A stretch of 54,518 bases of DNA from positions 1-54,518 of the forward strand of contig SIAR01000015.1 in NCBI GenBank assembly GCA_009691705.1, read 5' to 3'. This DNA comes from Phycisphaerales bacterium. Its GTDB lineage: Bacteria > Planctomycetota > Phycisphaerae > Phycisphaerales > SM1A02. The translations under genes and the position numbers were made by a program. The notes beneath the pieces are model-generated. The model did not search any database. It was not told where the DNA came from and saw only the letters and a list, made by a program, of their open reading frames with translations. Of this stretch, positions 16,516 through 53,859 are shown one piece after another; the first letter of the stretch is position 1, and the number at the start of each line of letters is the position of its first letter.

Positions 16516-16780
16516 TTCAGCAGACTACGGCGAAATACCCCGCTCAGCAATCCACGGCCAGTGTTTCCGCCGCCGTAGCGTGGTTTTTCCTGCAAAAATC
16601 CGTTGTTGATTTGTATTTGTTTGATTTGTGATTATCTTCATATGGTGTGGTTGCACTGTTTGCATCCACATCGGCTTGGTTTTTTATCGTTCTGTTAAGC
16701 ATGATGCTGATCTGACCGAATTGAGAAACCATGCTTCAACGCGTTTGGTTCCGAATCTCAAAGAAACTACTGGAGAAATG
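16516..16780. other. Intergenic region upstream of the large secreted protein
   Basis: About 265 bases between the divergent peroxiredoxin and secreted-protein genes. The stretch 16585-16700 is much more T-rich than the surroundings (for example TTGTATTTGTTTGATTTGTG), as expected for a promoter and leader. A TTGTAT/TATCTT pair at about 16611-16638 is a weak promoter candidate. GGAG at 16772-16775 is a clear Shine-Dalgarno motif 5 bases before ATG 16781. No other gene is seen. Confidence 0.4.
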
Positions 16781-19294
16781 ATGCGTAACGAAAAGCTTCT
16801 ATTTGCGGCGAGCGCACTGCTTGCCTCATGCACCACACTTGGCGCCTACGCCCAAGGTGGTCTCACGTGTGCCACTGCGGTCACAGCACTCAATGGGGAC
16901 AATGCATACAACAACACTGCTGGCACGCTCGACATGGACTACACGGGTCTGTGCGACATGGGGCCTTTCGGAACCGATTTCAATTACAACACAGTCTGGT
17001 TTTCGTGGGTTGCGGGCACGACCGATACGTACACGGTCTCGAACTGCAATCTCGCAAATGGAGTCGACACCAGATTCTCTGCTCAGACAAGTTGCGCCCC
17101 CGCTTCGGTCGTTGGTTGCAACGACGACGGCGCAGGTTGCGCAAATTTCTCGAGCATCATGACCTTCCCAGCGACTGCTGGAACGACCTACTACATCGCT
17201 GTCGGCGTCTATAGCACCACAACAGCTGGTGGACCTGGCACGATGAACATCGCTGTCGGCGACGGCGGCGGCGGTGGTGGTGGTGGTGGCTGCGGTACTG
17301 GCGGCAGTTGCTGTGTTGCGAATCCTGGAATGATGGGATGCATCGATCCCGATTGCTGCAACACCGTGTGCGCTGGTGATGCATACTGCTGCGCCACCGA
17401 ATGGGATCAGATCTGCGCCAATCAAGCGGCTTCCATGTGCACCGATTGCGGAGCGGGCGGATGCACACTCCCAGCATTCGGACAAGCCGAAGTCGAACCC
17501 TGCAGCGCAGACACCAATGGTGGCTGCAATGGTGGCGGTGTGAACGAACCAATCAGTTTCCCCGTTTCCATCGGCGGAACCTACTGGTCAAGCGCTTCGA
17601 TTCGCGACACTGACTGGTATTCGTTTACCACAACTGGAGGCACCCAGATTTCTGCGACGCTCTACAGCAACATTCCTGCGTTTTGCGCAGTTGTGGATGC
17701 AACCGCCTGCACGATCGTTGGGGCCGTTAGCACGGGCTCATGCCCATCGACGCTGCTGACGGCGTGCGTCGGACCAGGCTCGTATTACATCGTTGCGCTT
17801 CCAAGTGGATTCCTCGAGTTTCCATGCGGTGGATCGATCTCCAATAACTACGTGCTCGAACTCACTTCAGTGACCTGCACGTTCACGCCACCTGCTGGCG
17901 ACAATTGCGCGAACGCCGTGGTTGCGGTTGTGGGATCGAATTCGTTCGACAACAGCAACGCCAATACGAGTTTCCCAGATGTCACCTGCGGATTCGGTGG
18001 AGCACCATTCACCAAGGACCTGTTCTTCACGTTCGTTGCGCCTGCAACTGATGGGTACACACTGCAAACTTGCAGTTCGTCCGCGCCATTCGACACAGGC
18101 ATCGAACTCTGGGATTCATGCCCGGATAGTGGTGGCCAAATGTTGGCGTGTAACGACGACGGTCCTGGTTGCGCCTTCTACTCGTCCTTCCTCGGGGCTG
18201 ACCTGGTTCAAGGTGTCACCTACACGATTCGTGTTGGTGGATGGAACGGCGCAGTTGGAGCAACGGAACTCAACATCAGCCAGGGAGCCCCCGTGGGTCC
18301 ACCTAATGATGATTGCGCCGATGCTCAAGTTGCCATCGTCGGATCGAATGCGTTCGACACGAACGGTTCGACCACCGACGGCCCAAATCCGACCGATCCC
18401 ACCTGCGGTGCCTTTGCGGCGAGTTTCTACAACGATGTCTGGTTCTCATTCACTGCGCCAACAACCCAGGCTTACCTTGTTTCGGCCTGCTCAGCGACAT
18501 GGGACACCCGCATCGATGTGTACAGCGCATGCGGTGGATCGCTCGTAGTTTGCAACGATGATTCCTGCGGAACGCTTGCGTCCGAAGTGACCATTGCCGC
18601 GACTTCGGGCGCCATGTACAAGATCCGAATCGGTGGCTACGGAGCCGGAAACTTCGGAACGGGCACTTTAAACATCTCGGCGGCAGGCGGCGGCGGCGGC
18701 GGCGGCCCCGGACTCTCCTGTGCAGAGCCAGTGATGCTCGCGATGGGTGACACACCCTTCAGTCGTGCTGGTGCAACAGTTGATTTGAACTTCACCGGAT
18801 TCTGCGACATGGGTGCATTCGGAACCGAGATTAATTACAACTGCATCTTCTACACCTTCACCCCAGCCGAGTCGGGTTTGTACACCTTCTCGACCTGCAA
18901 CCTTGCCACGCACGACACACGACTCTCGGCATCGACAACATGCGATAACGTGTCAACTGTGGTCGGTTGCAATGATGACGGCACTGGCTGCGCCGCCTTC
19001 ACCTCCATTATGGATGTGCAACTGGATTGCGATATCGAGTACAGCATTGCGCTCGGCGGTTACTCCGCAACGACACCACTCGGAACGGGAACGCTCAGCG
19101 TGACCGTTGCGAGCCCAGTGGCTTGCGGCACACCATGCCCAGGTGATTACAACGGCGACGGCATCCGCAATGGAGCCGATCTTGCCACGCTGCTCTCAGC
19201 GTGGGGATCTCCCGCTGGCGACATCACAGGCGACGGCACCACGAACGGCGCCGATCTCACCACGCTGCTCAGTGGTTGGGGCGCCTGCCCATAA
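16781..19294 (+). CDS. Large secreted multi-domain protein with dockerin-like C terminus
   Basis: The 837-residue product has a signal peptide (MRNEKLLFAASALLASCTTLGAYAQGG) and is presumably exported. About four PPC-like beta domains of 115-130 residues follow, each marked by 'CNDD.' and 'Y.I.VGGY'-type elements. One Cys-rich module lies near residues 170-217 ('CCNTVCAGDAYCCATEWDQ'). Two poly-Gly linkers interrupt the chain, near residues 162-172 and 634-642. The C terminus is a dockerin-like pair, 'DYNGDGIRNGADLATLLSAW' and 'DITGDGTTNGADLTTLLSGW', likely binding Ca2+. ATG 16781 was chosen over the adjacent 16778 for Shine-Dalgarno spacing; the longer frame from 16628 lies in the leader. The role is unknown: cell-surface or matrix attachment is plausible. 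A strong terminator follows. Confidence 0.85.
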   Translation: MRNEKLLFAASALLASCTTLGAYAQGGLTCATAVTALNGDNAYNNTAGTLDMDYTGLCDMGPFGTDFNYNTVWFSWVAGTTDTYTVSNCNLANGVDTRFSAQTSCAPASVVGCNDDGAGCANFSSIMTFPATAGTTYYIAVGVYSTTTAGGPGTMNIAVGDGGGGGGGGGCGTGGSCCVANPGMMGCIDPDCCNTVCAGDAYCCATEWDQICANQAASMCTDCGAGGCTLPAFGQAEVEPCSADTNGGCNGGGVNEPISFPVSIGGTYWSSASIRDTDWYSFTTTGGTQISATLYSNIPAFCAVVDATACTIVGAVSTGSCPSTLLTACVGPGSYYIVALPSGFLEFPCGGSISNNYVLELTSVTCTFTPPAGDNCANAVVAVVGSNSFDNSNANTSFPDVTCGFGGAPFTKDLFFTFVAPATDGYTLQTCSSSAPFDTGIELWDSCPDSGGQMLACNDDGPGCAFYSSFLGADLVQGVTYTIRVGGWNGAVGATELNISQGAPVGPPNDDCADAQVAIVGSNAFDTNGSTTDGPNPTDPTCGAFAASFYNDVWFSFTAPTTQAYLVSACSATWDTRIDVYSACGGSLVVCNDDSCGTLASEVTIAATSGAMYKIRIGGYGAGNFGTGTLNISAAGGGGGGGPGLSCAEPVMLAMGDTPFSRAGATVDLNFTGFCDMGAFGTEINYNCIFYTFTPAESGLYTFSTCNLATHDTRLSASTTCDNVSTVVGCNDDGTGCAAFTSIMDVQLDCDIEYSIALGGYSATTPLGTGTLSVTVASPVACGTPCPGDYNGDGIRNGADLATLLSAWGSPAGDITGDGTTNGADLTTLLSGWGACP

Positions 19295-19326
19295 GTTTGG
19301 TTTCACAGTCAGTTCTTTGAGATAGC

Positions 19327-19364
19327 AACCCCCTCGGTCATTAGGCCGAGGGGGTTTTCTTTTT
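19327..19364 (+). terminator. Rho-independent terminator
   Basis: A 9-bp perfect stem CCCCCTCGG / CCGAGGGGG, extended by an AA/TT pair, encloses an 8-base loop and is followed by TTTTCTTTTT. It lies 32 bases after the stop of the large secreted protein and insulates it from the next gene. Confidence 0.95.
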
Positions 19365-19385
19365 GTTGAATTTGCCGAGTTTCTG

Positions 19386-19413
19386 ATGACAATTCAGGAC
19401 TATCCCGTATGGT
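19386..19413 (+). promoter_or_regulatory. Predicted promoter of the second secreted protein
   Basis: ATGACA (19386-19391), a 16-base spacer and TATGGT (19408-19413). The ATG at 19421 starts 7 bases after the -10, so the mRNA is probably leaderless. This supports ATG 19421 rather than ATG 19409, which overlaps the -10. Confidence 0.55.
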
Positions 19414-19420
19414 CACTGTG

Positions 19421-21082
19421 ATGTTCAACGCGCGGCTCCTTCAAACCGGTTCGATCGTTGGTGGTGCGTGTGCCTTCTGGGCGATAACTTGCGCCAGCGC
19501 GCAGGTCTGCCCTCCGGGTGCAACCGGGTCCTGCACGAGCGCGCACTCAACTCCCGGGTGTAGCGACTCGACTTGCTGCGAGCTCATCTGCGCGAGCGAC
19601 ATCGCCTGCTGCACTGCCAGTTGGGATGACTACTGTGCCTTCGTCGCTTCTCTCTTGTGCGATGCCCCCCCGCCTGTGCCCTGCGGCTCGCCATCCGCTG
19701 GTGCGTGCGATCAACCCCATGCAACGCCTTCCTGTTCAGACGCGGCGTGCTGCAACACAGTCTGCGCGTTTGTGCCCGCGTGCTGTTCGGTCGCATGGGA
19801 CACTCTTTGCGTCACCATCGCCGATGGAAACTGCGCGACCCAGTGCACTCCCTCATGCCCCACTGGTTCAATCGTCGAAGGTGAAATCTGTGGCACACAA
19901 AGCAACGGAGCGTGCGTTGGAGGTGCGCAGAATGCAACACTGCTCGCAGTGGGAAATGGCCAAGCAGTTTGCGGTCGGCTGCAACAGATCAATGATGGCT
20001 CGCCCGATCTTGATGGCTATCGAATCAACCTTCCCGATCCCAATGGGGATGGAATCGCGCGACTGACCGTGCAGTACACCGCGGAGTATGCCACCGATTC
20101 GAAGAGTTTCGTGGCGCTCTTGCCCACAGCGTGCACGCCGCTCGCGTCGGCGATACATGTGCTTCAGATGAATTCCTGCGGGGTGCAGGCGTTCAGCGCG
20201 TGCGTCCCAGCAGGAACGTGGATCGCAGTTGTCGGACGCGGAACGTTTCCAAATCCGCAGGTCTATCCATATGGTTGCGGAGGTTTGCAGTCGTATTCAC
20301 TGGGCGTCAGTTGGAACGATCAATGCACAAATCCTTGCGGAACCGCGGGCAGTTGCTACGAGCCGCACGCATCTGCCGGTTGCGAGATCGCCGCGTGTTG
20401 CTCGAGCGTCTGTGCCGTCGACCCTGTCTGCTGCGAGAAGAGTTGGGATCAACTCTGCGCCGACCGCGCTCTCATGCTCTGTCCACCGCCGACTCCTGCG
20501 AATGATTTGTGCCAGAACGCGCGCATCGTGCATCTTGGCAACACTCCCTTCACACTCGTGGGCGCCACCGCGACCTCATACCCCGCGCCATCGGGTTGCC
20601 TGGCAGGTGGAGGGACGCTGCTGGGCGCCGATGTCTGGTTTCGACTTACCGACGTCGAAGGCACTGTCGCACTCAGCACCTGCGGAGTTGGCGTGCTCGA
20701 TAGTGTGATCGTCGTCTACGACCAGCAATGCGCAACGACTGTGGTTGCCTGCAATGACGACGCAGCGACATGCCCAACAAACCAACTGAGTTCACAGGTC
20801 GAGTTCGCTGCCACTTGTGGCGGCGAATACTTCATTCGAATGGCGGCGATCCCAGGCCACACCGGATCGGGAACTCTGCGAGTCACAGCATCACTTCCAC
20901 CCTGCGCACCCTGCCCCGATGTCAATGACGACAATCAAGTCGACGGAGTTGATCTCTCGGCAGTGCTTGCAGGATGGGGAACTGGCGGCGGCGGCGGCGG
21001 CGGAGATATCGATGGCGACGGCAGCGTGAACGGAACAGATCTCACGGCGATTCTGGCTGGCTGGGGTCCGTGTCCGAACTGA
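19421..21082 (+). CDS. Secreted Cys-rich protein with dockerin-like C terminus
   Basis: The 553-residue exported protein has a signal peptide (MFNARLLQTGSIVGGACAFW). Three copies of a roughly 48-residue Cys-rich module follow: two in the first 120 residues and one near 305-355. Their core is 'CC..VCA....CC...WD..C', and the same module occurs once in the preceding gene. A PPC-like beta domain lies near 370-490, with 'VVACNDDAATC'. The end is a dockerin-like doublet ('DVNDDNQVDGVDLSAVLAGW' and 'DIDGDGSVNGTDLTAILAGW') separated by a Gly-rich spacer. The 3' 41 bases overlap the convergent acyl-CoA ligase gene. Surface localisation is likely; the function is unknown. Confidence 0.82.
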   Translation: MFNARLLQTGSIVGGACAFWAITCASAQVCPPGATGSCTSAHSTPGCSDSTCCELICASDIACCTASWDDYCAFVASLLCDAPPPVPCGSPSAGACDQPHATPSCSDAACCNTVCAFVPACCSVAWDTLCVTIADGNCATQCTPSCPTGSIVEGEICGTQSNGACVGGAQNATLLAVGNGQAVCGRLQQINDGSPDLDGYRINLPDPNGDGIARLTVQYTAEYATDSKSFVALLPTACTPLASAIHVLQMNSCGVQAFSACVPAGTWIAVVGRGTFPNPQVYPYGCGGLQSYSLGVSWNDQCTNPCGTAGSCYEPHASAGCEIAACCSSVCAVDPVCCEKSWDQLCADRALMLCPPPTPANDLCQNARIVHLGNTPFTLVGATATSYPAPSGCLAGGGTLLGADVWFRLTDVEGTVALSTCGVGVLDSVIVVYDQQCATTVVACNDDAATCPTNQLSSQVEFAATCGGEYFIRMAAIPGHTGSGTLRVTASLPPCAPCPDVNDDNQVDGVDLSAVLAGWGTGGGGGGGDIDGDGSVNGTDLTAILAGWGPCPN

Positions 21083-22538: not shown

Positions 22539-22578
22539 TGACTTGCATGGCCGAGCGGAGCCGCCGTACGATACGCGG

Positions 22579-23882: not shown

Positions 23883-23888
23883 CATCGC

Positions 23889-23895: not shown

Positions 23896-23901
23896 ATCAT
23901 C

Positions 23902-26051: not shown

Positions 26052-26082
26052 GTAACGAATCCTAGTAACAAGAAAAGACGGC

Positions 26083-26111: not shown

Positions 26112-26165
26112 ATACCGTACAAAATCTACCGTGATGGATCGAATCAATCCGATGAATGCACCAGC

Positions 26166-31815: not shown

Positions 31816-31847
31816 GATGCGAAGGGTAGCGCCGAGGCTCTACCAAA

Positions 31848-32448: not shown

Positions 32449-35400
32449 ATGCCAATTCCAGTCCTCGACTTCTTCATTCGTAAAACTTTCGGGACCCACA
32501 ACCAGCGCATGGTGCGCCGCTATCTGCGAATCGTCGACAAGGTCAACGATCTTGAATCGACCTTTTCGGTGATGACCGATCCGCAACTGCGCGAGATGAC
32601 CGATGTGTTTCGCGCCCGGGTGAGTAAGGGAGAGCGCCCCTACGACATGATTCCCGAAATCTTTGGCTGTGCCCGTGAGGCAATGGACCGCGCTGTTGGA
32701 TTGCGAAACACTTTCAATCCACTGCTCGGATTTGATCCATCGCAGTTGCCGGAACCGGCGCGACAACTCTTTCTAGAGACGCAGGCACTGATGCAGGCAA
32801 CTGCCCCCCGTCAACCCACCGCAGAGTTGCGTGGTTGCCACAGCGAGCTTGCTGGATGGCAACTGATCGACATTCCCCCGGCGGTCTATCAGGCGATTCG
32901 AGATGTGTTGCCCGAGAGTCGTCCACCATTTCGCGCCCGTCCATTCGATGTGCAAATCATTGGTGGAATCGTTCTGAGCGAAGGGCGCATTGCCGAAATG
33001 AAAACGGGTGAGGGCAAGACAATCGTCGGTCCGCTCGCCTGCTACTTGGCCGCCTGCGAAGAGAAGCAAGTGCACGTGGTCACGGTGAATGATTACCTCG
33101 TGCAGCGCGATCGCGATTGGACATTCCCGTTCTTTCGCGCCATTGGGCTCACTGTCGGTGCGATCCATCCCATGCATATGCAGCGGCCGAGTGACAAGAT
33201 CGTCGCCTATTCGTGCGATGTCGTCTATGGAACGACCAGCGAGTTCGGATTCGACTACCTGCGCGACAACATGAAACTGCGCAGTGCCGATCAGGTGCAA
33301 CGCCGCCGCGAGTTTGCGATTGTCGACGAAGTCGACTCAACGCTGATTGACGAGGCACGCACGCCACTGATCATTTCGGGACCGGCCTACACGCAGCAAC
33401 CCCGCTACGACCTCGCCAAACGATTGGCGATTCATCTCGTGGCACGTCAGACCGAGTGGCAGAGCAGTGAAGACAGAGTGCAGCACTGCCGGGCAGCAGC
33501 CGCTGGCGCCGAGGGTGACATTCGAAACGCACGCGACAAGTCTGCGATTCCAGCGATGAAGCGGCGACTCGACGAGGCGCGCAAACAGCTTCCACAACTC
33601 GAACGTGAACGGGATCGATTCACTCAGTACTACGAACTCGAAATGGACAAAAAGCGCGCGACGCTCACCCACGAGGGAGTCGAAGAGGCGCAACGCGAGG
33701 CGAAAATTGGCTCGTTCTACGTCGGCGAGAACATGGACATGCCCCACTTGCTCGAGCAATCAGTCCGCGCGCATACGGTTTATCAACTCGATCGCGATTA
33801 CGTGATCGCTCCCGATGAGGATGGTCAGATGGGCGTCGTCATCGTCGACCAGAACACAGGTCGCAAGATGGTGGGACGACAGTGGTCTGATGGATTGCAT
33901 CAAGCGGTCGAGGCGAAAGAGAACGTGCGCATTAAGGAAGAGACGCAGACGATGGCGACGATCACCATCCAAAACTATTTCAAGCTCTACCAGCGCCTCT
34001 CTGGCATGACTGGTACAGCCGATACAGAAGCGACTGAGTTTTTCGAGATTTACAGACTTCCGGTCGTGTCGATTCCAACCAACGTGGCCGCAGTGCGCAT
34101 TGATAGCCAGGATCTGGTCTTTCTTTCGCAGAAGGACAAATGGGAGCGCATCGTTGATGAGATCAAGCGCGTGCATGACACGGGGGCACCGGTGCTCGTG
34201 GGCACCACGAGTGTTGAGAAGAGCGAAATGCTCAGCCGCATGTTGACTGAGAAGCACATGATTCGTCACGAAGTGCTAAACGCCAAACAGCATGAGCGTG
34301 AAGCGGAGATCATCGCTGGCGCGGGACGACTCGGCGCAGTGATGATCGCCACCAACATGGCAGGCCGCGGAACGGACATCAAACTCGCGCCGATCGATCC
34401 AACGCTGCTGCTCGAGCACTGGAAGCGGCGCGACCTCGCACCGCGCGAAGTCGATGCATCGATGGGAGAATCAAAGTGTCTCGAGCTCATTCACCGCCAT
34501 TTGGCAGGGCGTTTTCTTGGGCAAAGTCGCAAAGAACTGGACGCACTCGACGCCCCGGCCGTGCGCCGCGCGCTGCTCGAGCACTGGGTGACCGAAGCTC
34601 GGGAACTGCCAGCGAAGAAGATCGCCTCGCTGTCGAATGAAGCGCTTGAGCGTGAACTCGACAATGCTGGCTGGAACGTTCATCGCCTGCAATTCTTCAC
34701 AAATGTCGAAGAACTCGGTGGTCTGCATATCGTTGGAACCGAACGCCACGAAAGTCGTCGTATCGACAATCAGTTGCGCGGCCGCTCAGGTCGCCAAGGC
34801 GATCAAGGTCGGTCGCGGTTCTTTCTCGCCCTAGACGATGAACTGATGAAGATGTTTGCCGGAAAGGCCACACTCAACGTGCTCAGCCGCTTCGGCATGA
34901 AGGAAGGCGATGCCATCGAAGCTCCGATGCTGAGTCGCGCAGTCGAGGGAGCGCAACGAAAGATTGAAGAGCGCAATTTTCAGATGCGCAAGACGATCCT
35001 CGATTACGACGAACCGATGGAAGTTCAGCGGCGCGATTTTTATGGACGGCGCCAACCCATTCTTGAAGGACGCGGAATCAAGAGTGTGATCTTCAACTAC
35101 ATAGACGAAGCCGTTGCGGATGCCGCCGCGACCTACCTCTCGCCACTGCACGTTCCTGGAGCGATTTCGCAGTGGGTGTGGGAAGCCTTCGGCGTGATGA
35201 TCGAACCAGAACGGTTTGCTGGCAAAGACCGAGAGCAAGTGCTCAAGACTGTTTCAGTCGATGCACTTGAAGAGGCCATCGAGCACATCACAGTCACCAT
35301 GGGCGAGTACATCCCCCAAGATTCAGATCCATCTGAGTGGGATCGCCCCGGGGTGATTGAGTGGGCAATGAAGGCCTACGGACTCGAGATCACCCAGGAG

Positions 35401-36636
35401 ATTGTCGATGCAGAGGGACGGGCCGGAGTTGTGCAGCGCCTTGAAAAGGCGGCACAAACACGCTTCGCCGCAATCGACTTGAGTCCACTCGAACCCTATC
35501 TCTTGCCCGGATACGGGGCGCGCGATCTCTTGCATTGGGCGAACCGAATGCTCGGCACGCAGTTGCACGATGATCTGCTCGCAGGGGTGCGCGATCCACT
35601 CGATGCAACCAATCGACTGCAGGAAGAGGTGCGCAAAGCCTATCGATTGCGCGAAGTCGCATATCCGATTGACTTTGCGATCGAGTTCGTGAACATCAAC
35701 ATTCAGACATTTCCAGAAGCGGCGCTCACCCAGTTTTGTGGTTGGGCGCGCGGTCGCTTTGAACTCGATTGGAACCCTCAGGCCCTGCCATCGGCCGATC
35801 CAGCAGAGTTGCGCAAGTTGCTCATGGCGGAAGCGCAGACTTGGGATGCCGCGCGCATCGCCACGCGCGTCGAACGCATTCTCGCATCATTAACCCTAGA
35901 CGACGCGACGGCGGGTGACGCTGCCCATCGCCGTACCGCCGCCGTCGAGGAGTGGCTTGCGAAGACAGTGTTCATTCGCTTGAGCGACGACGAACGCTCA
36001 GAGGTGCAACGCGATGCAAGCGCCTTTCTCAACCAGCGGCTCACCCGGCTTCTGCGCGAAGAGATCGAGCAGTTCGAACGATTCGTGCTCTTGCAGATTC
36101 TCGATCAATCGTGGAAGGATCACTTGCACGCCATGGATCAAATGCGCGACTCGATTTCGTTCCGTTCGTTTAGCCAGAAGGATCCGCGCATTGAGTTCAA
36201 GAAAGAGTCGTCGCGACTCTTTGGCGAAATGATTTCGAACGTGCGCGAGCGCGTCATTGACCTTGTCTTCAAGGGCAAACTCTCGCCGCAAGCGATGCGT
36301 CCGCCGACTCCACCGCCCGCGGCACCCACGCCACCGGTGGGTGATGAATCTGGCGCCGGTGATGACACCGCTGTTCTGCCAGCGAGTGCAGCCTCACGAA
36401 CGGCCCAGATTTCGGCAGTCGTTCCTACGCAATCGCAAGAGCGAGACATTGCCATCGCTGCGCACGCTGGGGCACCGAGTGCCCGCTCAGCATCATCCAT
36501 TGCTGGATCGCCTTCAGGAATGCCGCGACCCGCGCGCGTCGTGGTGCCCGTCGGCGCGCCCACCGCCGTTGGCCGCAATGAACCGTGCCCCTGCGGCTCT
36601 GACAAAAAGTACAAGCAGTGTTGCGGTAAGAAGTAA
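32449..36636 (+). CDS. secA: Preprotein translocase ATPase SecA, enlarged form
   Basis: The motor drives unfolded proteins through SecYEG. Walker A 'MKTGEGKT' has K190, the DEAD-type box is 'VDEVD' (292-295), and NBF2 has 'GTERHESRRIDNQLRGRSGR'. The C terminus has the zinc motif C1380-P-C1382...C1391-C1392 for SecB or ribosome contact. At 1395 residues it is far longer than the roughly 900 of E. coli. Extra sequence sits in the preprotein cross-linking region (about 340-410, charged and coiled-coil-like), before 'GGLHIVGTERHE' (about 650-755), and in the helical scaffold (about 890-1200). The linker before the zinc motif is long and rich in Pro, Ala and Ser. The gene stands alone, with no Shine-Dalgarno motif at ATG 32449. 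Confidence 0.97.
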   Translation: MPIPVLDFFIRKTFGTHNQRMVRRYLRIVDKVNDLESTFSVMTDPQLREMTDVFRARVSKGERPYDMIPEIFGCAREAMDRAVGLRNTFNPLLGFDPSQLPEPARQLFLETQALMQATAPRQPTAELRGCHSELAGWQLIDIPPAVYQAIRDVLPESRPPFRARPFDVQIIGGIVLSEGRIAEMKTGEGKTIVGPLACYLAACEEKQVHVVTVNDYLVQRDRDWTFPFFRAIGLTVGAIHPMHMQRPSDKIVAYSCDVVYGTTSEFGFDYLRDNMKLRSADQVQRRREFAIVDEVDSTLIDEARTPLIISGPAYTQQPRYDLAKRLAIHLVARQTEWQSSEDRVQHCRAAAAGAEGDIRNARDKSAIPAMKRRLDEARKQLPQLERERDRFTQYYELEMDKKRATLTHEGVEEAQREAKIGSFYVGENMDMPHLLEQSVRAHTVYQLDRDYVIAPDEDGQMGVVIVDQNTGRKMVGRQWSDGLHQAVEAKENVRIKEETQTMATITIQNYFKLYQRLSGMTGTADTEATEFFEIYRLPVVSIPTNVAAVRIDSQDLVFLSQKDKWERIVDEIKRVHDTGAPVLVGTTSVEKSEMLSRMLTEKHMIRHEVLNAKQHEREAEIIAGAGRLGAVMIATNMAGRGTDIKLAPIDPTLLLEHWKRRDLAPREVDASMGESKCLELIHRHLAGRFLGQSRKELDALDAPAVRRALLEHWVTEARELPAKKIASLSNEALERELDNAGWNVHRLQFFTNVEELGGLHIVGTERHESRRIDNQLRGRSGRQGDQGRSRFFLALDDELMKMFAGKATLNVLSRFGMKEGDAIEAPMLSRAVEGAQRKIEERNFQMRKTILDYDEPMEVQRRDFYGRRQPILEGRGIKSVIFNYIDEAVADAAATYLSPLHVPGAISQWVWEAFGVMIEPERFAGKDREQVLKTVSVDALEEAIEHITVTMGEYIPQDSDPSEWDRPGVIEWAMKAYGLEITQEIVDAEGRAGVVQRLEKAAQTRFAAIDLSPLEPYLLPGYGARDLLHWANRMLGTQLHDDLLAGVRDPLDATNRLQEEVRKAYRLREVAYPIDFAIEFVNINIQTFPEAALTQFCGWARGRFELDWNPQALPSADPAELRKLLMAEAQTWDAARIATRVERILASLTLDDATAGDAAHRRTAAVEEWLAKTVFIRLSDDERSEVQRDASAFLNQRLTRLLREEIEQFERFVLLQILDQSWKDHLHAMDQMRDSISFRSFSQKDPRIEFKKESSRLFGEMISNVRERVIDLVFKGKLSPQAMRPPTPPPAAPTPPVGDESGAGDDTAVLPASAASRTAQISAVVPTQSQERDIAIAAHAGAPSARSASSIAGSPSGMPRPARVVVPVGAPTAVGRNEPCPCGSDKKYKQCCGKK

Positions 36637-44065: not shown

Positions 44066-44090
44066 AGCGTAGCGCCACGCGAGTTACTAT
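44066..44090. promoter_or_regulatory. Divergent -10 elements of cinA and pyrF
   Basis: TACGCT on minus (44071-44066) ends 7 bases before the cinA ATG. TACTAT on plus (44085-44090) ends 6 bases before the pyrF ATG. No good -35 is visible for either. Only 38 bases separate the two start codons. Confidence 0.45.
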
Positions 44091-44096
44091 CTCTTC

Positions 44097-46558: not shown

Positions 46559-46586
46559 GTTTCTACACTTTCGCCGTGACTGACCC

Positions 46587-47416: not shown

Positions 47417-47599
47417 GCCGCGCACCTGCCTGCGACTATTGCTGCGTGCGGCTGTCAGCGTGGTGATTGCGCGGATGCATCCCCCATTTACACAAGAAAT
47501 GCCCATCTTTTTTGTTGCGGAGCGCCATGGTTGTCCGAAAACAATGCAATCCCAATTGCGCGTGAGCAGTTCGGGCAGCAAGCATCTTTCTCCCCTCCG

Positions 47600-47639
47600 C
47601 CCCGCCGACTTCTTCAATGACGTCGGCTGGGGTTTTTTT
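47600..47639 (+). terminator. Rho-independent terminator
   Basis: CCCCGCCGAC pairs with GTCGGCTGGGG (one bulged T) around an 11- to 12-base loop, followed by TTTTTTT. It lies about 180 bases after the thioesterase stop. The 47417-47599 stretch before it holds no gene I can support. Confidence 0.93.
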
Positions 47640-47649
47640 CTCACGACAC

Positions 47650-47678
47650 TTGACCGATGCGCTCGGCGTGCGTTCAAT
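47650..47678 (+). promoter_or_regulatory. Predicted promoter of the small lipoprotein
   Basis: TTGACC (47650-47655), a 17-base spacer and TTCAAT (47673-47678). ATG 47687 starts 8 bases after the -10, so the leader is 0-3 bases. It stands directly after the preceding terminator's T-run. Confidence 0.6.
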
Positions 47679-47686
47679 AGAGGCAT

Positions 47687-47908
47687 ATGAAGAAACTCAC
47701 ATATCTGTTTGCTACGAGCATCATTCTTGGTCTTGCTGCTTGCGGCGATTCTGGTTCGTCCAAGATCACAAAGGTTCAGCCAAAGCCCCCAGTCGCAGAA
47801 GCAGACAAGGTCGTTGGTCCTGACGATGCATTCAATGCGAATCGCAAGTTGCAATCGACCAGCGAGGCGCCCCCAACGGCTCCTAAGAAGAAAAAGAAAA
47901 CAGACTGA
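47687..47908 (+). CDS. Small lipoprotein, function unknown
   Basis: The 73-residue protein has a clear lipoprotein signal (MKKLTYLFATSIILGLAAC, lipid-bearing C19). A short polar chain ends in a Lys-rich tail (PKKKKKTD). The mature part of about 54 residues has no recognisable domain; the basic tail could contact peptidoglycan or phosphate groups. It is flanked by its own promoter and terminator, so it is an independent and probably well-expressed unit. Confidence 0.8.
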   Translation: MKKLTYLFATSIILGLAACGDSGSSKITKVQPKPPVAEADKVVGPDDAFNANRKLQSTSEAPPTAPKKKKKTD

Positions 47909-47938
47909 TCGCTGCGCGCGTCTGCGCGATCAAACAGG

Positions 47939-49108: not shown

Positions 49109-49110
49109 CT

Positions 49111-49431
49111 TTACTTTTTCTTGTCGCCGCCGGCCTTGGCACCAGCCGCAGGCTTCGCACTAGCCGCAGGCTTCGCACTAGCCGCAGGCTTCGCGCCAGC
49201 CTTGGCATCCGCCGGTTTGGCGCCATCAGCAGCAGCAGCGGCTTCTTTCTTGGGCTTCTTGGCAACAGCGGCCTTGATCGACCGCACCTTTGGCAAGCAA
49301 AGCACAGAGTTCTTGGAGTTGTCGAAGAGCGCAAGCTCTGTCAACTTGGCTATGCGCTCTGTTCGTGTCAGAACATTGCGATGTTGATTTAGACCGCCGG
49401 ATTTTGATTTCAGACTCGGATGAATGCTCAT
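49111..49431 (-). CDS. PVC 'small basic protein' with Ala/Lys/Pro-rich tail
   Basis: The 106-residue protein's first 53 residues (MSIHPSLKSKSGG...RNVLTRTERIAKL...LPKV) match my recollection of the short basic proteins conserved in planctomycetes, verrucomicrobia and chlamydiae. The remaining half is a histone H1-like tail of Ala, Lys and Pro with repeats of 'AKPAAS', ending GGDKKK. The core family is thought to be ribosome- or nucleic-acid-related; the tail would add nucleic-acid affinity. It is coupled (TAATG) to the preceding membrane-protein gene and is followed 2 bases later by the aminotransferase. Confidence 0.75.
   Translation of the reverse strand: MSIHPSLKSKSGGLNQHRNVLTRTERIAKLTELALFDNSKNSVLCLPKVRSIKAAVAKKPKKEAAAAADGAKPADAKAGAKPAASAKPAASAKPAAGAKAGGDKKK
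49145..49198. repeat. Three 18-bp coding repeats
   Basis: The unit GCCGCAGGCTTCGCACTA occurs three times (the third with CGCCA at its end), encoding repeated 'SAKPAA' in the tail of the small basic protein. Copy-number change would alter tail length without shifting frame. Confidence 0.9.
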
Positions 49432-50102
49432 TACTGACCTTTGAAAAGTTTCGGATAAAAATCGCGGAAGTCACCATTACCACGACCAAGCGCCTTCCAC
49501 TTTGCGCCGACCGCTCTGATCTTTGCCTCCAGCGCCTTCACTGGATCTCCTTCGCGATCCTCCCACCCGTAGCCGGGCAGGACAATCACTTGGGACCGAG
49601 CATTATGACTCGGAATCGTGATCGCATCAAGCCCTTGACCGCGACAAAACCCCACTAACTCGTTCGCACGATCAGGAGCCAGCACATCTGCGATGATCAA
49701 GTAGTTCAATCCAGCCTGCCTGGGATCGCCAATTGGGGGTGGTCCAAGCGGTGTGTCACCCACGGCGGGTGCGATTCTGCGCGGCTGAGGTGCGATTTCT
49801 GGGGGATTCGCCGCCCGCGGCGTGCCGGTGCCACCCCCATCGCGGGCCGATTGCGAAAGCAGTGGATCGATCGTGCGCGTCGCCCCCTGCTGCGCTTCAT
49901 TGTGCGTCAAGTCAGCCGATGCGACCCCGGCGCGAAATCCAAGGTAATAGACTCCCATCCCGAGCGCGATGACGATTGTGCAGAGCACAAGCACAAAGCC
50001 AAATGGCACGCGCATCGCGCGCGATCCAGTGGAGTTTGGAAGCACAGAAATCCCATCTTTCGCGCGGCGTGCTTCATAGAGAGTGGTCGCACCCTTGGCC
50101 AT
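49431..50102 (-). CDS. Membrane protein with soluble C-terminal domain, function unknown
   Basis: The 223-residue protein has a cytoplasmic N terminus (1-30), one membrane helix (FGFVLVLCTIVIALGMGVYYLGF), a Pro/Ala-rich linker, and a C-terminal domain (about 125-223). That domain contains 'LNYLIIADVLAPDRANELVG' and 'SQVIVLPGYGWEDREG', which is SPOR-like in layout but not a confident match. It ends in a basic, aromatic segment. TAGTCT (minus, 50114-50109) ends 6 bases before ATG 50102. Its stop overlaps the start of the small basic protein (TAATG). Confidence 0.7.
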   Translation of the reverse strand: MAKGATTLYEARRAKDGISVLPNSTGSRAMRVPFGFVLVLCTIVIALGMGVYYLGFRAGVASADLTHNEAQQGATRTIDPLLSQSARDGGGTGTPRAANPPEIAPQPRRIAPAVGDTPLGPPPIGDPRQAGLNYLIIADVLAPDRANELVGFCRGQGLDAITIPSHNARSQVIVLPGYGWEDREGDPVKALEAKIRAVGAKWKALGRGNGDFRDFYPKLFKGQ

Positions 50103-50114
50103 GGCTGCAGACTA

Positions 50115-50513
50115 TCACGCGGGCGCGTGCGTTGAGAGTCCCATCACGCTCGCCATGGCGAAACCGCCAGTGTGGGTGAGTGAGATCATCCAATGTGAGA
50201 TTCCGATGGCGTGTGCCGCCGCTGCGGCTCCACCAGTCAGAACTAAGGACGGCGCACCCGTCGCCAACGTAAAGACTTCGATGTCGGTCCAAGCCATCCC
50301 GGTGGTCATGCCAGTGCCGAGCGCCTTGAGCACCGCTTCTTTGGCGGCGAATCGCGCACTCAAGCGCTGCGTGCTCTGCGCTCCGCCTGCTATGGCATAG
50401 GCGCGTTCATTCGCGGTGAAGACGCGCTCAAGAAAGCGATCACCATGATCTTCGCGCATGCGTTCGATGCGCGTGATGTCGACCAAGTCAATGCCATGAG
50501 CGATGAGAGTCAT
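50115..50513 (-). CDS. acpS: Holo-[acyl-carrier-protein] synthase
   Basis: The 132-residue enzyme moves 4'-phosphopantetheine from CoA to acyl carrier protein. The metal-binding Asp in 'AHGIDLVDITRIERM' and the 'RFAAKEAVLKALGTG' motif are present, as is the C-terminal 'ISLTHTGGFAMASV'. ATG 50513 overlaps the preceding stop (TGATG), fixing the start. The frame is open far upstream to 51623, but that part is a shadow of the sugar-isomerase-like and nth genes. Confidence 0.95.
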   Translation of the reverse strand: MTLIAHGIDLVDITRIERMREDHGDRFLERVFTANERAYAIAGGAQSTQRLSARFAAKEAVLKALGTGMTTGMAWTDIEVFTLATGAPSLVLTGGAAAAAHAIGISHWMISLTHTGGFAMASVMGLSTHAPA

Positions 50514-51295
50514 CAGTGTGGATCCGCCGTCCATCGTTGCAGTGTCTGCGCTAGGCCAAGTAGCGGATCGGTCCACTGCCGAGCATCTGCCACGGGCGAA
50601 AACCGCAGTGGCAGCACCGCGAGTGAGGCGGCGTAGGCAAGCAAGTCGAGGCGCGATTCGTGCGGCTCTTCTGGTGGACCGCGCATCCCAGATCGCAGCA
50701 GATCGACGATGCGTGCGGTCACGACTTGACTGCCGCATCGCGCGACCACTTCGCAAAGCTCCTTCCCAGCCGCGAGAATCGTGGGTGGATCGATGCCGAT
50801 TCCAAGGGCGCTCGCGCTGCTCATTGGCGCTGCGCCCATCACAGCATCGAGTCCGTGGTCGGCGACCCACACTCCTTCGCGCTGCGCGCAGGCGCTGATT
50901 GCTTCGCGCACTTCGCGCAATCTGCTCTCGTTTTCCGCAGTTTTCTCTGGCAGGGCAATGCTCACTGGACAGCGGCCAACCGCTGCGGCAAGCGTCGCGC
51001 ACTGCGAGACAGCGTCGACAGCGCGATCGACAAAGGCAGAATCGATGAAATGCGCTGGCGGCACAAAGAGGTCGAATCCAGCACAGGAGAGACCGAGTCG
51101 TCGCAGGTGAGACGCGAGCCCCCTGCGTCCACTTCCATCGAGATCGCGGGGACGAGTTCCAACATGTGTGGCTGAGAGTTGTGCGGCGCGATATCCCATC
51201 TGCGCGATTGTCGCGAGCGCTTCGGCGACTTCTCCCGCAAGCGGCGCGACGGTCGCTGCGAGGGGCGGCAATTGTGTTGCGATGGGGTTCGGCAC
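50513..51295 (-). CDS. Sugar-phosphate isomerase/epimerase-like TIM barrel protein
   Basis: The 260-residue protein matches the AP-endonuclease 2/xylose-isomerase-like barrel group: 'ALATIAQMGYRAAQLSATHV', 'LRRLGLSCAGFDLFVPP', 'WVADHGLDAVMG' and 'LGIGIDPPTI'. Several metal-ligand positions are not obvious, so a divergent or inactive member is possible. Start GTG 51295 lies 6 bases after a TAGCCT (minus, 51307-51302). It is coupled to acpS and divergent from nth. Confidence 0.8.
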   Translation of the reverse strand: MPNPIATQLPPLAATVAPLAGEVAEALATIAQMGYRAAQLSATHVGTRPRDLDGSGRRGLASHLRRLGLSCAGFDLFVPPAHFIDSAFVDRAVDAVSQCATLAAAVGRCPVSIALPEKTAENESRLREVREAISACAQREGVWVADHGLDAVMGAAPMSSASALGIGIDPPTILAAGKELCEVVARCGSQVVTARIVDLLRSGMRGPPEEPHESRLDLLAYAASLAVLPLRFSPVADARQWTDPLLGLAQTLQRWTADPH

Positions 51296-51301
51296 GGTGT
51301 G

Positions 51302-51311
51302 AGGCTATCGT
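51302..51311. promoter_or_regulatory. Overlapping divergent -10 elements of nth and the isomerase-like gene
   Basis: The minus-strand TAGCCT (51307-51302) ends 6 bases before GTG 51295, and the plus-strand TATCGT (51306-51311) ends 6 bases before ATG 51318. The two hexamers share two base pairs, so the two promoters must compete or alternate. Confidence 0.5.
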
Positions 51312-51317
51312 GAGACC

Positions 51318-52082
51318 ATGGATGCCCTCGAGATGCGCGCGCGAGCGATTTTCAAAGCACTTGCGAAGCGCTACCCAGGTGCGCGCTGCGCACTGCACTG
51401 GTCGCAACCCCATGAATTGCTGATCGCCACCATTCTCTCGGCACAAGCCACAGATGTTGGAGTGAACAAGGCTACTCCCGCACTCTTTGCTGCGTTTCCA
51501 ACGGTGAAATCGTTTGCGCAGTCGAGCGCGGCTGACATCGAGCCCTTTGTTAAGCAGATCAATTTTTGGCGGATGAAGGCGCGGGCGGTCTTCGAATCGA
51601 TGCTGATGATTGAGCGTGAACATGGTGGCGAGGTTCCCCGCACGATGGAGTCACTCGTGCAACTTCGCGGTGTCGCTCGCAAGACTGCGAATGTGGTGCT
51701 CGGCAATGCCTTTGCCATCAACGATGGCGTGGTCGTCGACACCCACGTCATGCGACTCGCCCAACGCTTCGCACTCACGAAGCACGCAGACCCACTCAAG
51801 ATCGAGCGCGACTTGATGCGCATCGTTGCGCGCAAACATTGGTGTCAATTCTCGCACCTGCTGATCGCGCATGGTCGCGCAGTCTGCAAGGCGCGCGGCA
51901 ATACGTGCGCGACCGACACGATCTGTCAGAAATTCTGCTGTGAGGGCCAACGACCCCCACCCGCGCGCGTCACGGCGCGCCAGCCTTCGAAGGTTGCGGC
52001 GAAGGGGCAGCAACCGACGGAGCGTTTGGGTCGGCGTCGACCGACTGCCACATCGCCACGCCCATCCCGCCGAAGAGGCTGA
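51318..52082 (+). CDS. nth: Endonuclease III (DNA glycosylase/AP lyase)
   Basis: The 254-residue base-excision repair enzyme removes oxidised pyrimidines. The helix-hairpin-helix 'LRGVARKTANVVLG' holds the catalytic K122, and D141 lies in 'VVVDTHVMRL'. The C-terminal cysteine loop is odd: C190-x6-C197-x5-C203-x3-C207-C208, where the canonical 4Fe-4S spacing is C-x6-C-x2-C-x5-C; D200 and F206 stand at the canonical third and fourth positions. A tail of about 45 Arg/Pro-rich residues follows, and its last 113 bases overlap the convergent lipoprotein gene. Confidence 0.92.
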   Translation: MDALEMRARAIFKALAKRYPGARCALHWSQPHELLIATILSAQATDVGVNKATPALFAAFPTVKSFAQSSAADIEPFVKQINFWRMKARAVFESMLMIEREHGGEVPRTMESLVQLRGVARKTANVVLGNAFAINDGVVVDTHVMRLAQRFALTKHADPLKIERDLMRIVARKHWCQFSHLLIAHGRAVCKARGNTCATDTICQKFCCEGQRPPPARVTARQPSKVAAKGQQPTERLGRRRPTATSPRPSRRRG

Positions 52083-53508
52083 CCCATGTTGCTCCATCAA
52101 ATGTTCGGCGGGGATAGATGTTTGTCACGGGTCCTTGCAATCGCACCCGACCAACGCGCTTCATTGCCGAGCCAGTGAGTCGCCACACATCGATTCCATC
52201 GTCGTGGCCGATCCAAAGATCATCACCAACCAGCGCGAGCGTTCGCGCATGCGCACCTTGCGGCATCTGGATGCTCTGCCGCATTCCCTTTCCTTCAACC
52301 ACGACGCGCGAGCCACTCTCGATTGTGTATTCGTCGCGGTCTGCTCCCTCGATCGACGCTGTGCCGAATGAGCCAATGACGGTCGAGCTCGGTGGATTCA
52401 CCGGTTGAATGGGGTTTGCGCTGAGTTCGCAGGTGCCTCCAGACATATAGAGCCAATTGCCTTCATCACTGCCAGCAACAACGCGTCTTCCATCAGAGAG
52501 CGCACGTTGCAGTCGGCCAGGCTCGCGCGTTGCAGCGAAGAACTCGTCGGCGGGTCCTCGGCGATCTGCTTCGAAGCGGTAAAGCGACCGACCAAATGTG
52601 CCTGCGATTGCGAAAGTGTTTTCATCAGCGAGATCAATGTCAATCGCTCCGCGCACGCGAATCTCGCGCATGTCGCTGAGCGCGCTGTTCGAGATCTTCC
52701 AAGTCGTGGCACCGTTTGGCGTCACTGCCCAGAGTCGTCCATCGAGTTCGCGCAGGTGGCTCACGTTTCCGGCGACGACTTCGGCGGCCACCTCTTGCAA
52801 GTCTGCATCGAGTATTCCAACGCGGGCCTTGTCTTTACCTTGATAGATAAAGCCGATCCAGTTGCTCGATCCCACATTCGAAGTCAAAGGTTGCAAGTCG
52901 GTGGCGCGACCGAGCGTTGATCCATCTGAAAGCACCACAATTTCTCGATTGCGCGTCGTCACCAATCCGTGGGCGGTCAACACCACGCGACCGCAAACGT
53001 CGCTTCCCGCGAGAAACCGCTCGCCAGTATCTAGTCGCACCACGCCACCCAGTCCACTTACGTAGAGTTCATCGCCGACCACCGAAACACTCTCGGGGCG
53101 AATTCCCAGGGCTTTTTCTGAGATCGATTCGATGACCATCAGCGCGCGGGGATTCTCTTTGTCGATTCGAACAACAGCGGTTCGATCGAGCACGCCGATC
53201 AGATCGCCACGGAACAGTGTGAGGTCAACGAGCGCACCAGACTTGCCAACGGGCATGCAGGCAATCTCATCGAGCTTGACTCCCGTGGATGGCACTAGCG
53301 ACAACAGCGACCCGCCAAAGGGAGCAAACCACGTTCCATCGATGACAAGCGTTCGCCAATGCGTTCCACCCACCGCGTGGCTGATTTGTAACTCCTTGGG
53401 ACGGGCGTCCGCGCGCTCGACCGGGGTGTAGTCCGACATGCATCCACTCACAACCAACACTCCCAGCGCACTCATCACCTTCCCAGCTCGCGACAAAAAC
53501 GATCTCAT
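51970..53508 (-). CDS. Lipoprotein with beta-propeller-like repeats, function unknown
   Basis: The 512-residue protein has a lipoprotein signal ending V-S-G-C23. The rest is all-beta in character, with recurring blades such as 'VVGDELYVSGLGGVVRLDTG', 'LRELDGRLWAVTPNGATTWK' and 'ALVGDDLWIGHDDGIDVWRL', suggesting a six- to eight-bladed propeller. The C-terminal tail is Ala/Pro/Ser-rich and overlaps nth. TAACCT (minus, 53521-53516) ends 7 bases before ATG 53508, so that start was chosen over a longer frame to 53574. Probably a surface-anchored protein; ligand unknown. Confidence 0.72.
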   Translation of the reverse strand: MRSFLSRAGKVMSALGVLVVSGCMSDYTPVERADARPKELQISHAVGGTHWRTLVIDGTWFAPFGGSLLSLVPSTGVKLDEIACMPVGKSGALVDLTLFRGDLIGVLDRTAVVRIDKENPRALMVIESISEKALGIRPESVSVVGDELYVSGLGGVVRLDTGERFLAGSDVCGRVVLTAHGLVTTRNREIVVLSDGSTLGRATDLQPLTSNVGSSNWIGFIYQGKDKARVGILDADLQEVAAEVVAGNVSHLRELDGRLWAVTPNGATTWKISNSALSDMREIRVRGAIDIDLADENTFAIAGTFGRSLYRFEADRRGPADEFFAATREPGRLQRALSDGRRVVAGSDEGNWLYMSGGTCELSANPIQPVNPPSSTVIGSFGTASIEGADRDEYTIESGSRVVVEGKGMRQSIQMPQGAHARTLALVGDDLWIGHDDGIDVWRLTGSAMKRVGRVRLQGPVTNIYPRRTFDGATWVSLFGGMGVAMWQSVDADPNAPSVAAPSPQPSKAGAP

Positions 53509-53515
53509 CGGCAAA

Positions 53516-53538
53516 AGGTTAGCGCAGAGTGGTAGCCT
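53516..53538. promoter_or_regulatory. Divergent -10 elements of the lipoprotein and TPR genes
   Basis: TAACCT on minus (53521-53516) ends 7 bases before ATG 53508, and TAGCCT on plus (53533-53538) ends 6 bases before ATG 53545. Both predict leaderless mRNAs from a 36-base gap. Confidence 0.45.
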
Positions 53539-53544
53539 GCGCAG

Positions 53545-53859
53545 ATGAGCCAAGGACGGATCGAACTGCTCCAAAAAATGCTAGAAGAAGATCCCAGCGA
53601 TGCCTTTTGTCGGTACGGGATGGCACAGGAGTATCTAAAGGCGGGTGACACAGTTGCGGCGGTCGCGTGGTTTGACAAGACCATCGAAGTCGATATCGAT
53701 TACTGCTACGCCTACTACCACAAGGCGCGCGCCCTTCAACTTGCCCAACGGCTTGACGAGGCTTGCCAGTGCTTGCGGGTCGGGCTCGAGCGCGCCCGCA
53801 CAGCGGGCGATTCCCATGCGATAAGCGAAATCAGCTCTTTTCTGGATGAGTTGACGTGA
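53545..53859 (+). CDS. Small TPR-repeat protein
   Basis: The 104-residue protein consists of two to three tetratricopeptide repeats: 'DAFCRYGMAQEYLKAGDTVA', 'AYYHKARALQLAQRLDEACQ' and a final helix pair. TPRs mediate protein contacts; no partner can be named. It has no signal peptide. Its stop overlaps the start of recX (GTGA), suggesting coupled synthesis. Confidence 0.85.
   Translation: MSQGRIELLQKMLEEDPSDAFCRYGMAQEYLKAGDTVAAVAWFDKTIEVDIDYCYAYYHKARALQLAQRLDEACQCLRVGLERARTAGDSHAISEISSFLDELT

What the first reader, a model, noticed from the sequence alone, without database searches (positions are those of the whole stretch)
16522..53545. Most transcription units appear to start leaderless: a TANNNT hexamer 6-8 bases before the start codon
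At gene after gene that heads a transcription unit, a -10-like hexamer ends 6-8 bases before the start codon, leaving no room for a leader. Cases: peroxiredoxin TAGTCT, second secreted protein TATGGT, SPOR lipoprotein TACGAT, globin TAGGAT, HEAT-like protein TATCCT, class V aminotransferase TAGGAT, trpA TACCCT, zinc ribbon TATTAG, cinA TACGCT, pyrF TACTAT, small lipoprotein TTCAAT, 49431-50102 TAGTCT, isomerase TAGCCT, nth TATCGT, propeller lipoprotein TAACCT, TPR TAGCCT. Shine-Dalgarno motifs are clear for only two genes. Leaderless mRNAs are well known in actinobacteria and Deinococcus; I know of no detailed account for Phycisphaerae. Some matches will be chance because TANNNT is loose.
Basis: seen in the sequence. 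Interest (0 to 1): 0.75.

Follow-up and report, generated by a model that had tools for sequence, protein, structure and literature searches.

The report
Leaderless genes with minimal shared promoters
In this uncultured planctomycete roughly half of the genes that head a transcription unit seem to be transcribed from their very first codon, without the usual ribosome-landing leader, and some back-to-back gene pairs appear to share one tiny two-way promoter.

Summary
Of 16 listed hexamers, 14 are TANNNT ending 6-7 bases before a start codon; two (TATTAG, TTCAAT) are not TANNNT. With motif-blind starts in 20% of this genome, TANNNT peaks exactly at -12: 24 of 158 unit heads against 16 of 1,878 intergenic decoy ATG/GTG (p=1e-22). 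Mixture models put 41-49% of heads and 12-16% of operon-internal genes in the leaderless class, and 17-18% of heads and about a third of internal genes in the SD class. So about half, not most.

The signal repeats in held-out genus genomes (0.28-0.33), fades in the family (0.15-0.18) and order (0.10-0.13), and is not seen in five genomes of other orders of the class (0.00-0.02) or in E. coli. The element is like [C/T]GNTANNNT without a clear -35, as described for Mycobacterium tuberculosis. Three divergent pairs keep both -10 hexamers in 16-18 same-genus loci; two share overlapping -10s (TANNNTA, ANNNTANNNT), geometries of known bidirectional promoters. Anti-SD is intact in the genus.

Best reading: leaderless transcription, a known kind, in a lineage for which I found no account. 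No RNA data were available.

The parts
16522..16527 (-). -10 hexamer TAGTCT, 6 b before peroxiredoxin ATG 16515
   Evidence: AhpC/TSA family, residue 7 at profile position 3; the motif-blind caller preferred 16359 by 3.9 nats
19408..19413 (+). -10 hexamer TATGGT, 7 b before ATG 19421 (start 0.6 nats below the called 19409)
22567..22572 (+). -10 hexamer TACGAT, 6 b before GTG 22579 (SPOR-domain protein)
   Evidence: same-genus orthologue has TAAGAT at 13
   Evidence: TANNNTA in 16 of 16 aligned loci incl. this one
26059..26064 (-). -10 hexamer TAGGAT, 7 b before ATG 26051 (class V aminotransferase-like)
   Evidence: orthologues in two genus and one family locus also TANNNT at 12-17
31823..31828 (-). 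-10 hexamer TACCCT, 7 b before GTG 31815 (trpA)
   Evidence: trpA profile begins at residue 9
44066..44071 (-). -10 hexamer TACGCT, 7 b before ATG 44058 (cinA)
   Evidence: TANNNT in 18 of 18 same-genus loci incl. this one, read by eye; CinA profile position 2 at residue 4
44085..44090 (+). -10 hexamer TACTAT, 6 b before ATG 44097 (pyrF)
   Evidence: TANNNT in 18 of 18 same-genus loci incl. this one, read by eye
50109..50114 (-). -10 hexamer TAGTCT, 6 b before ATG 50102; gene is operon-internal by distance
51302..51311 (.). shared element AGGCTATCGT (ANNNTANNNT): TAGCCT for the - gene at 51295 (isomerase-like) and TATCGT for the + gene at 51318 (nth), overlapping in the central TA; start codons 23 b apart
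   Evidence: ANNNTANNNT in 18 of 18 aligned loci incl. this one
53516..53521 (-). -10 hexamer TAACCT, 7 b before ATG 53508
   Evidence: the motif-blind caller chose 53475
53533..53538 (+). -10 hexamer TAGCCT, 6 b before ATG 53545
   Evidence: start 1.4 nats below the called one

Best explanation
The hexamers are -10 boxes of housekeeping-sigma promoters of the type [C/T]GNTANNNT without a clear -35. RNA polymerase starts about 7 bases after the hexamer, on the first base of the ATG or GTG or a few bases before it, so the mRNA is leaderless (0 to about 5 nt of leader). Such mRNAs would be read by 70S ribosomes or initiator-tRNA-loaded 30S at the 5'-terminal start codon, while many operon-internal genes and some heads use the intact SD/anti-SD route. 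Because no leader is needed, divergent genes can sit 16-40 bases apart; in the tightest pairs one palindromic element holds both -10s and works as a bidirectional promoter. Shown: motif, position, distribution, conservation, intact anti-SD in the genus, weakening outside it. Inferred: the start sites, sigma recognition, the ribosomal route, mutual exclusion of the two directions.
For: Sharp peak at -12 with motif-blind starts: 24 of 158 heads, background 1.0 per position; against intergenic decoys p=1e-22 own, 2e-10 genus, 2e-12 family. Mixture estimate for heads 0.49, 20 shuffles at most 0.04; internal 0.16; with a generic TANNNT and flat offsets 0.41 (10 shuffles at most 0.07) and 0.12. Positive control Deinococcus deserti plasmid 0.20, negative control E. 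coli 0.01. Orthologous heads agree in status in the genus: 7 both, 7 neither, 0 mixed (Fisher p=0.0006). Near-invariant columns between three divergent pairs fall on the T, A, T positions. Start codons of TANNNT genes (12-16) were never TTG: 0 of 155 against 26 of 669, p=0.008 (own+genus+family), as expected if a purine start base is the start codon. Divergent gaps of 0-59 b: own+genus 24 of 103, other orders of the class + rest of phylum 0 of 73, p=8e-7. Anti-SD GGATCACCTCC in 3 of 3 full-length same-genus 16S genes. RpoD present in this genome.
Against: No RNA data. Starts come from my own caller, not from annotation; homology reaching residue 5 or earlier was found for only 12 of 24 TANNNT heads with relatives (33 of 59 other heads). 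A third of heads fit neither class. Internal genes also carry the motif (0.12-0.16): internal promoters or misplaced operon borders. The motif-weighted model was trained on this genome; the generic one gives less (0.41). Some control groups also score: Nitrospirae loci 0.22 and 0.50 (32 heads; the second is above this genome's value, shuffle maximum 0.35), Spirochaetes 0.16 and 0.30, Dehalococcoids 0.10 and 0.13. At nth the hexamer is kept in 18 of 18 loci but the next start differs: in-frame ATG/GTG at 12-16 in 7, TTG at 13 in 7, ATG only at 21 in 4 (L292, L293, L295, L296, read by eye), so there nth would have a leader of about 9 nt. Family and class orthologue pairs are not all concordant (1 mixed of 6 and 1 of 3 head pairs). 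In the other families of the order the hits lie at 10-15 in small numbers.
Confidence: 0.9

Rival explanations
1. Chance: TANNNT is loose and the reader picked matches by eye.
For: TANNNT occurs at about 0.6-0.9% per position, and two of 16 listed cases do not fit.
Against: Motif-blind counts exceed intergenic decoys about 18-fold at -12 in this genome, and the excess repeats in genus and family; shuffles for this genome's heads give at most 0.04 and 0.07.
Confidence: 0.01
2. Real promoters, but the true start codons lie further downstream, so the mRNAs carry ordinary short leaders.
For: Start codons are predicted; for 8 of 24 TANNNT heads with relatives the earliest alignment begins after residue 15; in 4 of 18 nth loci the first in-frame ATG lies 21 b after the hexamer's first T.
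Against: cinA, pyrF, nth and peroxiredoxin match their family profiles from residue 4, 10, 7 and 7 at profile position 2-3; the motif-to-start distance peaks at one value although the caller knows nothing of the motif; 12 of 24 align to relatives from residue 5 or earlier.
Confidence: 0.05
3. The motif is a translation signal of leadered, non-SD mRNAs (for example an A/T-rich S1 or Bacteroidetes-like element), not a promoter.
For: Nakagawa 2017 (PMC5397173, passages read) could not separate leaderless from RPS1 signals in bacteria, its one planctomycete included.
Against: The motif is T-A-NNN-T at a fixed distance, not generally A/T-rich; commoner in heads than in internal genes; kept for both directions of divergent pairs; the G two bases before the T is a promoter-like feature.
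Confidence: 0.03
4. Binding site of a global regulator that overlaps start regions.
For: Palindromic elements at two divergent pairs could be read as operators.
Against: The motif stands before heads of varied function at -10 spacing; the two palindromes differ in spacing just as two overlapping -10 boxes would (inference).
Confidence: 0.02

Closest known systems
Leaderless genes of bacteria with TA-like signal (Zheng 2011, PMC3160421, passages read)
   Same: TANNNT about 12 b before the start codon, counted from its first T; high-GC groups show an uninformative middle.
   Different: The passages name Actinobacteria, Deinococcus-Thermus, Aquificae, Chloroflexi, Firmicutes; planctomycet and pirellula have 0 hits in its main text.
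Leaderless transcriptome of Mycobacterium tuberculosis (Cortes 2013, PMC3898074, passages read)
   Same: TANNNT -10, no conserved -35, often preceded by SRN, CGN among these in 45%; purine start base in 85%; 26% of genes with a primary start site leaderless; closely juxtaposed divergent promoters called common.
   Different: Another phylum; measured by RNA-seq there, sequence only here.
-10 region adjacent to ORFs in Deinococcus-Thermus (PMC12340547, passages read)
   Same: TANNNT just before the ORF, almost one third of D. radiodurans ORFs, shown by experiment to act as -10 region.
   Different: My estimator gives 0.20 for the D. deserti plasmid stretches and 0.41 here; short divergent gaps 1 of 16 there, 16 of 58 here.
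Bidirectional promoters from symmetric -10 elements (PMC10268837 and PMC12825309, passages read; Warman 2021 recalled, not held)
   Same: Overlapping divergent -10s; start sites 18 bp apart most often, 10 and 23 bp also common. TANNNTA and ANNNTANNNT give 18 and 23 with 6-base spacers.
   Different: [quoted passage not shown] here both directions would give leaderless mRNAs.

Membership tests
Leaderless bacterial genes | -10 box about 12 b before the start codon (first T), in excess of chance | tested here: met
   24 of 158 heads at -12, p=1e-22
Leaderless bacterial genes | mostly single genes and operon heads | tested here: met
   heads 0.41-0.49, internal 0.12-0.16
Leaderless bacterial genes | no SD in front of these genes | tested here: inconclusive
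   the mixture model makes the classes exclusive; not counted gene by gene
Leaderless bacterial genes | 5' end of mRNA within 5 nt of the start codon | not testable with these tools
   no transcript data for this MAG
Mycobacterial-type -35-less promoter CGNTANNNT | no conserved -35 | tested here: met
   no column beyond chi2 11.3 upstream of -3 in own (75 genes) or genus+family (79); TTG and TTGACA-like words by spacer show no peak in own; genus+family has 4 TTGACA-like at spacer 17, other spacers 0-3, no formal test
Mycobacterial-type -35-less promoter CGNTANNNT | CG/YG three and two bases before the T of TA | tested here: met
   CG is the commonest dinucleotide: 18 of 75 own, 24 of 80 genus+family; YG 23 and 35
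Symmetric bidirectional promoter | overlapping -10s with start sites 18 or 23 bp apart | tested here: met
   TANNNTA in 16 of 16 and ANNNTANNNT in 18 of 18 aligned same-genus loci, this genome included; sequence only, start sites inferred
Symmetric bidirectional promoter | RNA made in both directions | not testable with these tools
   needs transcript ends
Loss of the SD system (Flavobacteriia type) | anti-SD lost or unused | tested here: not met
   CCTCC kept in L339-L341; SD class 0.33-0.34 of internal genes

The most novel reading that the evidence does not exclude
A planctomycete genus has shifted its default gene start to leaderless transcription in parallel with mycobacteria, down to a similar -35-less CGNTANNNT promoter, in a graded way visible from order to genus, and uses palindromes of 7-10 bases in spacers of 16-22 bases as complete two-way promoters of conserved gene pairs, so that one polymerase at a time must choose between, for example, nth and its isomerase-like neighbour.
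Probability: 0.5. Interest if true: 0.7.

Novelty: new member of a known kind. Interest (0 to 1): 0.55.

Why it matters
It adds a planctomycete lineage to those known to be rich in leaderless genes and suggests the habit grew from near zero in other orders of the class to about half of heads in this genome, so the steps from SD-led to leaderless starts could be followed by comparison. It also bears on annotation: tools that expect SD may misplace starts here, and the -10 helps to fix them. The tight divergent pairs are ready tests of bidirectional promoters whose two products would both be mRNAs.

Tried and rejected
A free EM with an adjustable SD motif let the SD component act as filler (0.61); I kept only its leaderless motif and used fixed-motif models. 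Its controls (three shuffles, reverse complement, 100 b further upstream) did not converge on TANNNT. Search for a -35: none clear. Leaderless reading of the whole class: not borne out (0.02 and 0.00 in 160 heads of five genomes). Phylum: G101 0.17 and 0.16, G084 0.01 and 0.33, G103 and G057 0.00; with 34-47 heads each I draw no conclusion. Control groups of other phyla that also score are told in the Against line. Position 12 alone is weak in the other families of the order (3 of 155, p=0.04); their hits lie at 10-15. Order loci of the HEAT-like gene lack the divergent globin (7 of 7) and L329-L331 carry AGGAGG before an ATG. Of 12 order loci of nth the scan found TANNNT before an in-frame ATG/GTG in three, one of them 13 residues inside.

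Rows dropped: L311 was left out of the globin/HEAT alignment because its globin match began at residue 11 (one search shows TATCCTA there too); genes within 60 b of a stretch end, 32 of 59 genus pairs without agreeing starts, matches over 95% identity. The 16 globin/HEAT loci come from 15 genomes (one has two). The 7/0/0/7 concordance counts one aminotransferase twice. Overlapping divergent calls (negative gaps: own 4, genus 8, family 10, order 4, class 3, phylum 1) stay in the denominators but not in the counts of 0-59 b.

Literature searches: leaderless+planctomycetes (11 papers), leaderless+Phycisphaer (1 paper; its passages give an anti-SD class), leaderless transcripts/Deinococcus/TANNNT, GeneMarkS-2, planctomycete start-site mapping (none of the 20 listed of 64 holds a planctomycet word), bidirectional promoters. 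My statement that I found no account rests on these open-access listings; Warman 2021 and the GeneMarkS-2 paper are not held.
Full report
WHAT WAS GIVEN. The window is contig C15 of a draft genome of 1,985,919 bases in 46 contigs, 93% complete, with no 16S gene found. One search reached 18 same-genus, 6 same-family and 16 same-order genomes.

THE LISTED CASES. All 16 hexamers are in the sequence before an open reading frame; 14 are TANNNT with a 6- or 7-base spacer, two are not TANNNT. The gene at 50102 is operon-internal by distance. Among 24 heads called in the window, 8 carry TANNNT at 11-17 at the motif-blind start and 12 if nearly equal starts are allowed; 2 of 15 internal and 0 of 7 intermediate genes do.

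GENOME-WIDE TEST. I wrote a gene caller that knows coding potential and start-codon type only, and ran it on the window plus 20 stretches (397,881 bases, 20% of the genome). Among 305 usable genes TANNNT with its first T at -12 occurs 39 times; at positions 18-40 it occurs 0 to 4 times; heads give 24 of 158, internal genes 8 of 100. First T at -12 means the hexamer occupies -12 to -7, the place of a -10 box whose start site is the A or G of the start codon. Decoy ATG/GTG wholly in intergenic DNA have TANNNT at -12 in 16 of 1,878 cases, decoys in or near coding DNA in 33 of 25,144. A shoulder at 13-17 would mean leaders of 1-5 bases.

HOW MANY GENES. A three-way mixture (leaderless, SD, neither) that sums over near-equal starts gives 0.49, 0.17, 0.33 for heads and 0.16, 0.34, 0.50 for internal genes with the motif learned here, and leaderless 0.41 and 0.12 with a generic TANNNT and flat offsets. 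Twenty shuffles of the upstream DNA of the heads gave at most 0.04. The generic model gives 0.20 for 72 heads on 200 kb of a Deinococcus deserti plasmid (a genus known for leaderless genes) and 0.01 for 65 heads on 150 kb of E. coli (loci).

THE PROMOTER TYPE. Aligned on the hexamer, 75 genes here show, besides T, A and T, G at the second base upstream (0.46) and C at the third (0.45), C or A at hexamer position 5 and C or T right after the hexamer; genus plus family give G 0.58. CG is the commonest dinucleotide there, 18 of 75 and 24 of 80. No -35 stands out (four TTGACA-like words at spacer 17 in genus plus family are the highest count there). This resembles the M. tuberculosis description: TANNNT, no -35, often CGN before it (PMC3898074, passages read). 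Genes with TANNNT at 12-16 never start with TTG in own, genus and family samples (0 of 155) while others do (26 of 669), which fits a purine start base; the nth loci below are an exception.

CONSERVATION. In 14 start-consistent orthologous head pairs between this genome and genus genomes, both or neither carried the motif (7 and 7), while the middle letters and flanks often differ; family gave 2 both, 3 neither, 1 mixed, order 1 both, 2 neither, class 2 neither, 1 mixed. For cinA all 18 same-genus loci (this one and 17 others; an 18th relative had no match) have TANNNT 6-9 bases before an in-frame ATG/GTG, the others at 51-64% protein identity (read by eye); at least 7 of 12 more distant family and order loci in the same output do too.

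DIVERGENT PAIRS. cinA and pyrF have 38 bases between their start codons; both hexamers are kept in 18 of 18 same-genus loci (read by eye; in L115 the aligner shifted the pyrF hexamer). The globin and HEAT-like genes have 16 or 19 bases between; in 16 aligned loci the invariant letters of the spacer are TAT..TA, that is TANNNTA, which holds a -10 for each strand. The isomerase-like gene and nth have 22 bases between; invariant letters in 18 loci are AG..TA...T, that is ANNNTANNNT with the two -10s overlapping in TA. At nth the start codon is less constant than the hexamer: in-frame ATG/GTG at 12-16 in 7 loci, TTG at 13 in 7, ATG only at 21 in 4. With 6-base spacers the two geometries put the start sites 18 and 23 bp apart; E. 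coli bidirectional promoters are reported with 18 bp most often and 10 and 23 bp also common (PMC12825309, passage read; PMC10268837, passages read). Divergent gaps of 0-59 bases are 16 of 58 here, 8 of 45 in the genus sample, 7 of 44 in the family, 4 of 38 in the rest of the order, 0 of 37 in other orders of the class, 0 of 36 elsewhere in the phylum, 0 of 42 in loci of other phyla, 1 of 16 in D. deserti, 1 of 17 in E. coli.

SPREAD. Leaderless share of heads by the two models: genus 0.33 and 0.28; family 0.18 and 0.15; order family f2 0.10 and 0.13; other order families 0.11 and 0.12 (the second within its shuffle maximum of 0.13); other orders of the class 0.02 and 0.00. SD share of heads is 0.17 here, 0.06 in the genus, 0.38 in the family, 0.50 in other orders. 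Three full-length same-genus 16S genes keep GGATCACCTCC at the 3' end (loci), so the SD route remains available. Outside the phylum, Nitrospirae (32 heads), Spirochaete (48) and Dehalococcoid (49) loci also score to some degree, Clostridia and lactobacilli do not.

MECHANISM. Most likely RpoD (present) holds the -10 with help of the YG just upstream, needs no -35, and starts on or just before the start codon; ribosomes then take the 5'-terminal codon. In the tight pairs the same DNA must serve both directions, so the two genes could not be initiated at the same moment. The first part rests on sequence and on transfer from Mycobacterium and Deinococcus, the ribosomal part on general knowledge of leaderless initiation, the exclusion on geometry.

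NOVELTY. Leaderless genes, CGNTANNNT promoters and symmetric two-way promoters are all known. [quoted passage not shown] I found no account for this order in the searches named under Tried and rejected. I file it as a new member of a known kind, with a notable graded spread and notably small shared promoters.

Noticed in passing
   Followed up: no
32449-36636: SecA of 1,395 aa, matched by one SecA profile in four separate stretches, so it probably holds long insertions.
   Followed up: no
L282-L287, L294, start of nth: nth seems to begin with TTG 7 bases after TATCGT, an exception to the lack of TTG among TANNNT genes.
   Followed up: partly
L329-L331 upstream of the HEAT-like gene: Distant orthologues in order family f2 have AGGAGG before an ATG where this genus has the -10: a gene that may have changed its mode of starting.
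   Followed up: no
L219-L238: In the pooled sample of other order families 17 of 35 TANNNT hits lie at 11 and 8 at 12, a one-base shorter spacer than here.
   Followed up: no
L021-L024, L026, L038: MAG records entitled Singulisphaera sp. GP187 carry DNA polymerase I 55-81% identical to this genome's; L021's contig has the length of contig C1 of same-genus genome G005, so the titles look wrong.
   Followed up: no
L064, L068, L070, L071 (Nitrospirae): TANNNT excess at 11-12 also in 32 heads of these loci; perhaps another lineage with leaderless genes.
   Followed up: no
G000-G018: 16S rRNA was found in only 4 of 19 same-genus drafts, one of them partial.
   Followed up: no
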